Positions 1 through 2,771 of a stretch of 64,000 nucleotides of DNA are shown piece after piece. The first letter of the stretch is position 1. Each line of letters starts with the position of its first letter. The notes under the pieces are model-generated. The model searched no databases. It worked only from the letters and a program-made list of their open reading frames with translations, and was not told the origin of the DNA. This stretch comes from an uncultured archaeon. GTDB taxonomy: Archaea > Thermoplasmatota > Thermoplasmata > Thermoplasmatales > Thermoplasmataceae. The stretch is from NCBI GenBank assembly GCA_000965745.1, contig CP009479.1:1560457-1624456 (forward strand). The letters are read 5' to 3'. Position numbers and translations under genes: made by a program.

Positions 1-701
1 TTTCCTGATCCCGTCTCTCCGAATATCAGCACGTTGTGGGAATTCTTGTTAAAAATATCCAGAAAGACTGGTTTTTCCGTGATGTCATCAACCCCAAGAG
101 CAACTCCTCCCGCTTTGGGAACAGGGGTGAACGAAAGTGGGAAAATTGAGGATGCTGAATGAGTATCCATCAGGTACGGCTTACCCACATTATCCTTTGG
201 CGACGACATCTCCTTGAGCCTGTTTGTTGAGATATACTCAACGGGTCGGACGATGAGGCCCATAAGCTTCATCACAGACGAAAATGTAGCAGCACTCTCC
301 CTTAATTTTACTGGATGTTCCGAAGATACCCTGAAGGAAGCAAAAAGGTTCACCAGAAGTGATCTCCTGGCCCCAATTCTTGAGGACATGTTCTCAAGGT
401 CGTATATCTGGCGGTTCAGCTTCTCGCGTTCGGAGTCCCCCATTGTCCTGCTGTACCTGATTTCAGACTTTCTGTCTGCGATGTATTTGCCAAGTGTGGA
501 TGAGCTGACTTTCTCCGGAACAGGCCTGATTATGAATTTCATCAGAACAGGAAAGCTGAGAGATTCCAGTAATGGCAGGTAATCTGTCCCACCCCCGTAG
601 TCTGAATCCACGAGAGTAAAAACCTGGTGGTGCTGATCAGTCGTGTAATACGCTTTCCCAATCTTGAAATTTGTGTTTCTCAACCTTCTACTATCATTCA
701 T
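1..701 (-). CDS. VirB4/CedB-like conjugation ATPase, N-terminal part (cut by window edge)
   Basis: The minus strand is open from an ATG at 701 (or 707) to the window edge. The last residues before the edge form a P-loop, GETGSGK, preceded by a hydrophobic strand ending NVLIF. About 215 residues come before the P-loop, which fits the N-terminal domain found before the motor domain in VirB4/TraC and archaeal CedB/HerA-like ATPases. GAGGT stands just upstream, and the gene follows the stop of its neighbour at 721 by about 20 bases. The last of four co-oriented genes whose order (pilin-like, VirB6-like, VirB3-like, ATPase) resembles a type IV secretion core. Inference: it powers DNA transfer or uptake across the membrane. 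Any HerA/FtsK-type ATPase with a P-loop remains possible, because Walker B and the rest lie outside the window. Confidence 0.72.
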   Translation of the reverse strand, partial: MNDSRRLRNTNFKIGKAYYTTDQHHQVFTLVDSDYGGGTDYLPLLESLSFPVLMKFIIRPVPEKVSSSTLGKYIADRKSEIRYSRTMGDSEREKLNRQIYDLENMSSRIGARRSLLVNLFASFRVSSEHPVKLRESAATFSSVMKLMGLIVRPVEYISTNRLKEMSSPKDNVGKPYLMDTHSASSIFPLSFTPVPKAGGVALGVDDITEKPVFLDIFNKNSHNVLIFGETGSG

Positions 702-720
702 AAACATACCTCATATACAA

Positions 721-1398
721 TCATGAAAGTGATTCAAGAATCAAGCTGAGCGTTTTCCCGTCCTCCACAAGTTCGCAGTTCCCCGCAACCCCAGAGAGGG
801 CAGACCTTATCGTATTCAAGTCATCCATGAGGCCTCTGCCCGAAATCTCGCTGTTTCTCCCATTCCCCCACACGATGATGAAGGATCTGTAGTAATATTG
901 ATCCTCAAACAGATAATCCAGGAATCTGTTGTAATTTTCTGATAACCTGTCAGCTTCCTCTACATGATACATTTTGGAGTCCACAGAAAAGGGTATGGCA
1001 AGGAAACTGGCCGCCCTTCCCATGGAAGAAAAGGCATTTGAAACCGCTTTTTCAAAATCTTTCCTGCTTTCAGGATTCAACGTGTGGACGTCTGCCCCTT
1101 TAACCTCAAGGCAGTATCCTTTACTTGCGCCCTTAAGGAAGAAGTGATTATCATTTACGGCATCCACCTTCACCCCGTTTGGCGGAATCCCGCGATGCGA
1201 TGAAGCTTTCCAGAGGATGCTCCTTGCCACCAGAGTTCCTATGGAAGACCCTTTCCTTACAGGAACAAAGAAAACAAGGGCAAAAACCAGTGCAAGCAGA
1301 GAGTAAAACAATGATATCTCTGACACCATGGCCGCCAGTGAAACAGAAACAAGAATCAGCACAGCATTCCTCGCTTCCAGTCCTGCAATTTTAGGCAT
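721..1398 (-). CDS. VirB3/PrgI-like membrane protein with soluble domain
   Basis: A 225-residue protein. A hydrophobic N-terminus (about residues 10-47) can form two membrane helices and is followed by about 170 residues of soluble alpha/beta sequence. The open frame extends upstream to 1569, but that part overlaps the previous gene. The first ATG after that gene's stop (1436) is at 1398, so it is taken as the start, although no clear Shine-Dalgarno site precedes it. A short two-helix membrane part before a cytoplasmic region, encoded directly before a VirB4-like ATPase, is typical of VirB3 and PrgI proteins. Its soluble part may stand in for the VirB4 N-terminal domain, as in fused VirB3-VirB4 proteins. 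Family assignment rests mainly on topology and position. Confidence 0.6.
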   Translation of the reverse strand: MPKIAGLEARNAVLILVSVSLAAMVSEISLFYSLLALVFALVFFVPVRKGSSIGTLVARSILWKASSHRGIPPNGVKVDAVNDNHFFLKGASKGYCLEVKGADVHTLNPESRKDFEKAVSNAFSSMGRAASFLAIPFSVDSKMYHVEEADRLSENYNRFLDYLFEDQYYYRSFIIVWGNGRNSEISGRGLMDDLNTIRSALSGVAGNCELVEDGKTLSLILESLS

Positions 1399-1435
1399 GA
1401 AAGTGTTTATGTTTGCAGGTATCCTGTTATTGCCC

Positions 1436-2476
1436 TTACTCCTCGTATGAATCCACCTCGAAGCGGTTATATTCAAGATCCCGTGCCAGGGCGAAATCCT
1501 GCATCGACGTCTTTTTTGCACGGGAGGCGAAAGTGCCTGATTTTCCTGCAGTGCCGAACACATCCCCAACTGAATTCTTTACGCTTCCTGACGCAAACTT
1601 ACCTATTGCCCCCGCAGGACCTGAAACAGAAGATCCCAGAAAATCCCCGGTATTCATAAGGGAAGTTGCCGAAGAACTGAGTATCGAGCTGGCGGTAACT
1701 AGAAGGTACGGGCTGGATGCGGCCAAGATAATAAATGCAGCCTGAAGAAGGAAGTTTCCATAGAAAATATGGGCATTATACAGTATTATCAGGATAAAGA
1801 AGGGGAGCGCATTTATCTCTATGAAAAGTTTCCAGAATTTGACGGCAAGGCTATCAAACCCCTTTATAACGAAAAAAAGGGAGAACAGTGGAAGTGTGGA
1901 CACAAGAAAAATGGCAAGGGCCTGTCTTATTTCAAGAACTGCCAGGAGCGCTCCTGTTCCGACGAAGTAAAGTGAAAGAAGGAGAAATTCCATGACCTGG
2001 AAAAATGGATTTTCAGAGTAGCTTGCCTTGATTTGGGCAACTGAATTCGAAACAGACAAGAGTGAATACCAGTCTACGGACCCATAGTTCCATACCTGGA
2101 GGAATATGGCCTGAAATATCTTCATTACAAAAATTGAAGTCTGCAGGGAGAAGAATGACAAGATGACAGCAAAAACGGACCTGTAGAGCAGGGAGGAAGG
2201 GAATTGTATTTTCCCCAGTGAGTTAGAAGCCATGAGTGCAAACGAGCCGGCTAGAAGCAGGGCCCCTGCGATTGTCAGGTATATACTGTTGTAGAGGGCG
2301 TTGAAAAATGCCATAAACGAACTATTTGCCGCTATCCCAACGGGGAATGAGTACTGCGGAGTCAACCCGTAATACACAACGTAATACCAAATGGCAGCAA
2401 CTAACGCTATGTAGGCATGGTTAATAAGCGAAATAAGTGCTGAAAGCGTTCCAGGCAGAGTGGAAAGCAACGACAT
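1436..2476 (-). CDS. VirB6/CedA-like polytopic membrane protein
   Basis: A 346-residue protein with about seven or eight hydrophobic helices between residues 15 and 275. A polar tail of about 70 residues follows, rich in Gly, Ser and Ala and then in charged residues. VirB6/TrbL and the archaeal DNA-import channel CedA have this architecture: many helices followed by a low-complexity Gly/Ser C-terminus. It starts at an ATG four bases after the stop of the pilin-like gene and ends shortly before the VirB3-like gene, so the genes are probably co-transcribed. Inference: the channel or assembly platform of the DNA-transfer apparatus. Sequence similarity to known VirB6 proteins was not tested. Confidence 0.62.
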   Translation of the reverse strand: MSLLSTLPGTLSALISLINHAYIALVAAIWYYVVYYGLTPQYSFPVGIAANSSFMAFFNALYNSIYLTIAGALLLAGSFALMASNSLGKIQFPSSLLYRSVFAVILSFFSLQTSIFVMKIFQAIFLQVWNYGSVDWYSLLSVSNSVAQIKASYSENPFFQVMEFLLLSLYFVGTGALLAVLEIRQALAIFLVSTLPLFSLFFVIKGFDSLAVKFWKLFIEINALPFFILIILYNAHIFYGNFLLQAAFIILAASSPYLLVTASSILSSSATSLMNTGDFLGSSVSGPAGAIGKFASGSVKNSVGDVFGTAGKSGTFASRAKKTSMQDFALARDLEYNRFEVDSYEE

Positions 2477-2480
2477 TTTT

Positions 2481-2771
2481 CTACGATCCGGAAACTATGA
2501 ACTTGAAGATTGCATAAAGCGTACCGCTGAGGGCAAGCACATAGATCAGTGTACCAATGAATGCATTCTTAAGCCTGATTTTTGCGTCATATCGCCTATC
2601 TTCGTCTCCGCTGAAAAAAGAAATCGCGATGGGAACCCACAGAAGCCCGATTATTACGGCGGAAACAGAAGCCACAACTTCATAGATCCGGTTTACCACA
2701 CCTGACAGCTGTGAACTAATGACCAAAACGGTATTAGAGAGAAAATGAAACTCAATAGCACTTAATACCAT
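2481..2771 (-). CDS. small two-helix pilin-like (VirB2/CedA1-like) protein
   Basis: A 96-residue protein. After a mildly hydrophobic N-terminus it has two strong membrane helices (about residues 30-54 and 70-93). They are joined by a charged loop, GDEDRRYDAKIRLKNA, rich in Lys and Arg. VirB2-type conjugative pilins and the archaeal CedA1 subunit are small proteins with two hydrophobic helices and a short basic loop. This is the first gene of the four-gene cluster. A TATA-like element lies about 24 bases before its ATG (2791-2799), so the message is probably leaderless. Family assignment is by architecture and gene order. Confidence 0.6.
   Translation of the reverse strand: MVLSAIEFHFLSNTVLVISSQLSGVVNRIYEVVASVSAVIIGLLWVPIAISFFSGDEDRRYDAKIRLKNAFIGTLIYVLALSGTLYAIFKFIVSGS

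What the first reader, a model, noticed from the sequence alone, without database searches (positions are those of the whole stretch)
1..2771. Ced/type-IV-secretion-like DNA transfer module in a Thermoplasmatales-type genome
Seen: four co-directional, tightly spaced genes encode in order a 96-aa two-helix protein with a basic loop, a polytopic protein with a Gly/Ser tail, a protein with two N-terminal helices and a soluble domain, and a P-loop ATPase (GETGSGK). Known: VirB2/CedA1 pilins, VirB6/CedA channels, VirB3/PrgI and VirB4/CedB ATPases have these forms, and Ced imports DNA in Sulfolobales. Inference: a chromosomal DNA-exchange machine in Thermoplasmata, domesticated because ordinary core genes flank it.
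Basis: partly seen in the sequence, partly recalled or inferred. Interest (0 to 1): 0.85.

Follow-up and report, generated by a model that had tools for sequence, protein, structure and literature searches.

The report
Chromosomal mating machine of Thermoplasma-type archaea
Four neighbouring genes encode a stripped-down version of the machine that bacteria use for mating; almost every Thermoplasma- and Ferroplasma-type archaeon examined carries it as an inherited chromosomal part rather than on a plasmid, so it may be how these acid-loving microbes swap DNA.

Summary
The 96-aa protein is a VirB2-type pilin (Pfam T4SS_pilin above its cut-off; 29 of 29 relatives match). The AlphaFold model of the polytopic protein has R388 TrwI/VirB6 as its top four PDB neighbours. 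The ATPase, read past the window edge, is 467 aa and fits VirB4 families (1e-28) far better than CedB (3e-10) or HerA (3e-4).

The third gene needs correcting. It is not just VirB3: it is the missing N-terminal part of VirB4 behind two membrane helices. Its profile aligns with the N-terminus of one-piece VirB4s in sister genera (E 6e-23), and its model's top eight PDB neighbours are R388 VirB4. VirB4 occurs split or joined at this hinge across the family (14 split, 19 joined), with at least four changes.

The pilin is present in 43 of 44 sampled family genomes and reaches a family outside the order. Flanking genes are shared in 19-24 of 33 family loci. No relaxase (one family tested) was found in the genome, and no viral or close plasmid relative. 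Best read as a domesticated minimal T4SS, analogous to crenarchaeal Ced/Ted. Published mentions are only component annotations. DNA transfer itself is inferred, not shown.

The parts
2481..2771 (-). VirB2-type pilin, 96 aa, two TM helices with a charged loop
   Evidence: Pfam PF18895 T4SS_pilin 28.7 bits vs cut-off 26.6; 29/29 orthologues match; 39-58% identity to relatives
1436..2476 (-). VirB6-like polytopic channel protein, 346 aa, disordered Gly/Ser tail
   Evidence: AlphaFold pLDDT 81.5; Foldseek PDB top four hits all R388 TrwI/VirB6, prob 0.82-0.92, E 0.07-0.15; no meaningful Pfam/NCBIfam hit
721..1476 (-). VirB4 N-terminal half: two TM helices (VirB3-like hairpin?) plus VirB4 N-terminal domain; start codon uncertain (TTG 1476 likely)
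   Evidence: Aligns to columns 14-223 of one-piece VirB4s of sister genera, E 6e-23; Foldseek top eight PDB hits all R388 TrwK/VirB4, prob 0.98-1.0, E 0.010-0.035
1..707 (-). VirB4 ATPase half, 467 aa; the last 697 nt lie left of the window
   Evidence: VirB4 families 1e-28 to 2e-16, AAA_10 and TraG P-loop above cut-off; aligns to columns 233-673 of one-piece VirB4s; complete in L002:9304-10707

Best explanation
A domesticated, minimal type IV secretion system. Six VirB4 units (each assembled here from two proteins, an N-domain anchored by two TM helices and a soluble ATPase) power extension of a VirB2-type pilus through a VirB6 platform and drive single-stranded DNA between cells of the same kind. 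The strand would be made by the separately encoded HerA-NurA-Mre11-Rad50 set rather than by a relaxase, and the imported strand would feed homologous recombination. Shown: identity of the four components, gene order, chromosomal inheritance, recurrent splitting or joining of VirB4. Inferred: hexamer, pilus, DNA as cargo, direction, use in repair or recombination.
For: All four proteins match T4SS subunits by independent tests. Pilin in 103/300 class genomes, including 43/44 of the family; VirB6 in 63/390 phylum genomes. Conserved flanks: rpiA 21/33, thioesterase 24/33, dihydroneopterin aldolase-NTPase-Trm1 side 19/33 family loci. No MobA-type relaxase or TraG-D_C protein in the genome; no viral relative; plasmid matches only 24-31% identical among the 15 listed. 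HerA-NurA-Mre11-Rad50 operon present, HerA-NurA being the proposed maker of the transferred strand for Ced/Ted (PMC9905601). A TrwB/VirD4-like ATPase is encoded elsewhere (G000:C1:1838706). Ferroplasma acidarmanus Fer1 carries the cluster, and Ferroplasma populations are mosaic through recombination (PMC2704941).
Against: No experiment. VirB6 and VirB4-N fold matches are specific in ranking but modest in E-value. Cargo could be protein, or the pilus could serve adhesion. No direct sequence link to CedA, CedA1 or Ted proteins could be tested.
Confidence: 0.66

Rival explanations
1. A chromosomal T4SS-derived pilus or secretion machine with a non-DNA job (adhesion, protein delivery, contact with partner cells), as has been argued for the mostly relaxase-less T4SS of Patescibacteria.
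For: No relaxase found; PF18895 was also used to find the Patescibacteria pilins (PMC12102498); large proteins of 1500-1850 aa lie next to the pilin/VirB6 genes in 5 of 12 loci of the second lineage, the one scanned having PKD and Ig-like repeats; tandem pilin-domain proteins in f5 (L138).
Against: HerA-NurA set and TrwB-like ATPase in the same genome; the DNA-carrying Ced/Ted have the same minimal parts; a Ferroplasma with known recombining populations keeps the cluster.
Confidence: 0.2
2. An integrated conjugative element or its recent remnant.
For: Components descend from conjugation machines.
Against: Same locus and flanks across many genera, 43/44 sampled family genomes, single copy, no MobA relaxase, no viral or close plasmid relatives.
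Confidence: 0.04
3. A plain HerA/FtsK-type ATPase with unrelated membrane neighbours.
For: The ATPase belongs to the HerA-FtsK superfamily (PF01935 above cut-off).
Against: The best VirB4 family outscores HerA by over 20 orders of magnitude in E-value; it carries VirB4 N-domain material; a true HerA exists elsewhere in the genome; the neighbours are conserved T4SS subunits.
Confidence: 0.02

Closest known systems
Ted system (Thermoproteales) and Ced system (Sulfolobales)
   Same: Chromosomal minimal set VirB2-VirB4-VirB6, no relaxase, HerA present, archaeal hosts (PMC9905601)
   Different: Different phylum; ATPase is VirB4-type, not CedB/CedD orthologue; compact operon; VirB4 often split into N-domain and ATPase genes. 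In Ced the VirB4 N-domain is shared between CedB and CedD (PMC11868833)
T4SS of Patescibacteria
   Same: Lineage-wide chromosomal T4SS with VirB2-like pilins, mostly without relaxase, T4CP usually far from virB4, pilin arrays (PMC12102498)
   Different: Bacterial; a split VirB4 is not mentioned in the passages read; role thought to be other than conjugation, tied to epibiotic life
Monoderm ICE T4SS (Mbov_0397 and CD1110 families) and TraC
   Same: Best-scoring VirB4 families for the ATPase; weak match of the pilin to the Mbov_0395 family
   Different: Those belong to mobile elements
VirB4 (arCOG04034) and neighbours annotated in Cuniculiplasma and E-plasma genome papers
   Same: Very probably the same genes: PMC5155288 lists a VirB4, membrane proteins and a separate VirD4-type ATPase as type IV secretion components; PMC10354927 mentions a VirB4
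   Different: Annotation only: no pilin identified, no split VirB4, no distribution or domestication argument in the passages read

Membership tests
Type IV secretion system | VirB4 ATPase with its N-terminal domain | tested here: met
Type IV secretion system | VirB6-type polytopic channel protein | tested here: met
   Top four PDB structure matches are TrwI/VirB6, prob 0.82-0.92 but E 0.07-0.15; no sequence-family match
Type IV secretion system | VirB2-type pilin | tested here: met
   PF18895 above cut-off, 29/29 members match
Type IV secretion system | VirB3-type membrane hairpin | tested here: inconclusive
   Two TM helices precede the VirB4 N-domain in the third protein; too short to compare on its own
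Type IV secretion system | VirD4-type coupling ATPase | tested here: inconclusive
   None near; a TrwB_AAD_bind relative is encoded about 275 kb away; its link to the cluster is unknown
Ced system | CedB and CedD ATPases | tested here: not met
   NF041017 39 bits vs cut-off 700; CedD 34 vs 600
Ced system | DNA import, DNA-damage induction | not testable with these tools
   Needs experiments
Ted system | Homology to TedA, TedB, TedC | not tested
   No Ted sequences could be fetched; the part list is the same
Integrative conjugative element | Relaxase | tested here: not met
   PF03432 absent in the genome; other relaxase classes not searched
Integrative conjugative element | Variable, mobile location | tested here: not met
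   Shared flanks in 19-24 of 33 family loci
HerA helicase | HerA equivalog score | tested here: not met
   NF040819 14.5 bits vs cut-off 970

The most novel reading that the evidence does not exclude
An ancient, lineage-wide DNA-exchange machine of the Thermoplasmata, inherited vertically, that causes the frequent recombination and mosaic genomes seen in Ferroplasma, and whose VirB4 motor is built from two proteins, a state switched repeatedly by gene fission and fusion.
Probability: 0.5. Interest if true: 0.82.

Novelty: new variant of a known kind. Interest (0 to 1): 0.66.

Why it matters
Domestication of a conjugation machine for cellular DNA was reported in 2023 for hyperthermophilic crenarchaea, whose authors knew of no other case (PMC9905601), and a December 2025 T4SS review does not mention Thermoplasma. 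A case in another archaeal phylum would suggest that turning a conjugation machine into a sexual one is a recurrent step, and gives a concrete gene set to test for the long-known recombination of Ferroplasma populations. The repeatedly split VirB4 also gives a natural experiment on how the VirB4 N-domain and motor fit together.

Tried and rejected
Plain HerA: rejected on family scores. A VirD4 of its own next to the cluster: the PF02534 hit in the genome is HerA of the NurA-HerA-Mre11-Rad50 operon. Pilin and VirB6 derived from one another, as reported for CedA1/CedA: not seen here (hhalign probability 0.3%). Sequence-profile search of PDB with VirB6, pilin and third-gene alignments: nothing useful (the phaseolin hit is taken as chance). 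Extra DUF87 ATPases in sister genomes (L142-L144): a separate conserved TrwB-like gene beside housekeeping genes, not a second T4SS. Direct comparison with CedA/CedA1/TedA/TedC: no sequences reachable.

Full report
Observation. The four genes at window 1-2771 are real, co-directional and tightly packed. The whole genome (one contig of 2.23 Mb) supplies the missing end of the ATPase: 467 aa, complete, with GETGSGKS and LIDEAH. Genes on both sides are housekeeping: a 4HBT thioesterase and rpiA to the right; dihydroneopterin aldolase, an NTPase_1 family protein, Trm1, a prenyltransferase and purL to the left (rpiA, prenyltransferase and purL named from their sequence, not by a search).

Identity of the parts. 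(1) The 96-aa protein passes the Pfam cut-off for T4SS_pilin, and every one of 29 aligned relatives matches that family. (2) The polytopic protein matches no sequence family, but an AlphaFold model from 38 relatives (pLDDT 81.5) has VirB6 of the R388 system as its four best neighbours among 350,542 PDB chains. E-values are 0.07-0.15, so the evidence is the specificity of the ranking together with the context. (3) The ATPase fits VirB4 models at 1e-28 to 2e-16, against 3e-10 for CedB, 1e-8 for CedD and 3e-4 for HerA. (4) The third protein is the surprise. In 19 of 33 family loci the VirB4 gene is one ORF of about 540-760 aa; in 14, including the window, there are two ORFs. The profile of the third protein aligns with positions 14-223 of the one-piece VirB4 profile (E 6e-23) and the ATPase profile with positions 233-673. 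A model of the third protein (pLDDT 81.3) has R388 TrwK/VirB4 as its eight best PDB neighbours (probability 0.98-1.00, E 0.010-0.035). It is therefore the N-terminal half of VirB4, preceded by two membrane helices that may stand in for VirB3.

Split and joined VirB4. Trees of the ATPase and of pilin + VirB6 + ATPase need six changes between split and joined, at least two and four respectively being forced by well-supported branches. The more distant families sampled in the order (f3, f4, f5) were all scored as split, by gene layout; the third-gene profile itself recognises the separate protein in some f5 and f15 loci. The window genome branches near the base of the family with other split ones, which hints that split is the older state in this group. 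These are 'quick' trees with SH-aLRT support only. The split in L036 could be a sequencing frameshift.

Distribution and inheritance. With the pilin profile, 103 of 300 genomes of the class match, including 43 of 44 of the window's family, and a separate family (f15) outside the order. With the VirB6 profile, 63 of 390 genomes of the phylum match, in largely the same groups. Named hosts include Thermoplasma sp., Ferroplasma acidarmanus Fer1, Acidiplasma aeolicum, Cuniculiplasma sp., E-plasma and I-plasma, and nothing outside Thermoplasmata. The flanks are shared: rpiA in 21, thioesterase in 24, and the dihydroneopterin aldolase-NTPase-Trm1 side in 19 of 33 family loci; a small convergent two-helix protein sits next to the ATPase in 26. 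No relative is found in viral contigs and only remote ones on plasmids. This is the pattern of an inherited chromosomal system, not of a mobile element.

What is missing and what may stand in. No MobA-type relaxase and no TraG-D_C protein were found in the genome. A HerA-NurA-Mre11-Rad50 operon is present; HerA-NurA is the pair proposed to make the transferred strand for Ced/Ted (PMC9905601). A TrwB/VirD4-like ATPase lies at a distant locus of this genome (G000:C1:1838706-1840700), with homologues in 44 of 61 genomes; a relative passes the TrwB_AAD_bind cut-off. In family f3 a 678-aa HerA/VirD4-like ATPase directly follows VirB4. ATPases of the type II secretion/type IV pilus family are also present in the genome, so a Ups-like aggregation partner is possible but untested.

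How it most likely works. By analogy with Ced/Ted and R388: VirB6 and the N-domain/TM half of VirB4 form the membrane platform, the ATPase half docks on it and powers extension of a VirB2-type pilus and strand passage, and the strand is used for homologous recombination. Component identity, order and inheritance are shown; assembly, pilus, DNA cargo, direction and purpose are inferred.

Known or new. The Cuniculiplasma genome paper lists a VirB4, membrane proteins and a VirD4-type ATPase as type IV secretion components (PMC5155288), and the E-plasma paper mentions a VirB4 (PMC10354927). I found no paper that describes the pilin, the conserved locus, the split VirB4 or a domesticated system in Thermoplasmata; the open-access library is not the whole literature. 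The nearest known systems are Ced/Ted and the chromosomal T4SS of Patescibacteria (PMC12102498). Ferroplasma populations are known to be mosaic through recombination (PMC2704941), and the acid-mine Ferroplasma genomes were reported to lack type IV pilus genes (PMC3750248) while Ferroplasma acidarmanus Fer1 carries this cluster. That makes the DNA-exchange reading testable.

Noticed in passing
L002:9047-9301 (+), just left of the window: A convergent 84-aa two-helix protein adjoins the VirB4 end and has homologues there in 26 of 33 family loci, even where genes beyond it have been rearranged; possibly an extra component.
   Followed up: partly
L138:8826-13685: In family f5, five consecutive ORFs carry pilin-like segments, several within 320-405-aa proteins, beside an Ig-repeat protein: a pilin array like those of Patescibacteria.
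   Followed up: partly
L130, L131, L132, L133, L135: In the second lineage (f15) a 1500-1850-aa protein lies next to the pilin/VirB6 genes; the one scanned (L131) has PKD and Ig-like repeats, possibly an adhesin.
   Followed up: no
L094:10500-12536: In family f3 a HerA/VirD4-like ATPase of 678 aa overlaps the end of VirB4, a candidate coupling protein.
   Followed up: partly
L147:4695-6707 and L144:9041-10996: A conserved TrwB-like ATPase gene at a locus away from the T4SS cluster, with homologues in 44 of 61 genomes.
   Followed up: partly
L066:11112-11486: The f3 pilin has an N-terminal signal-peptide-like stretch that the short Ferroplasma-type pilins lack, echoing the TedC versus CedA1 difference.
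   Followed up: no
window 1395-1569: The N-domain gene has no close ATG or GTG start before its conserved P-x-N motif; TTG 1476 within the previous gene is the likely start.
   Followed up: yes
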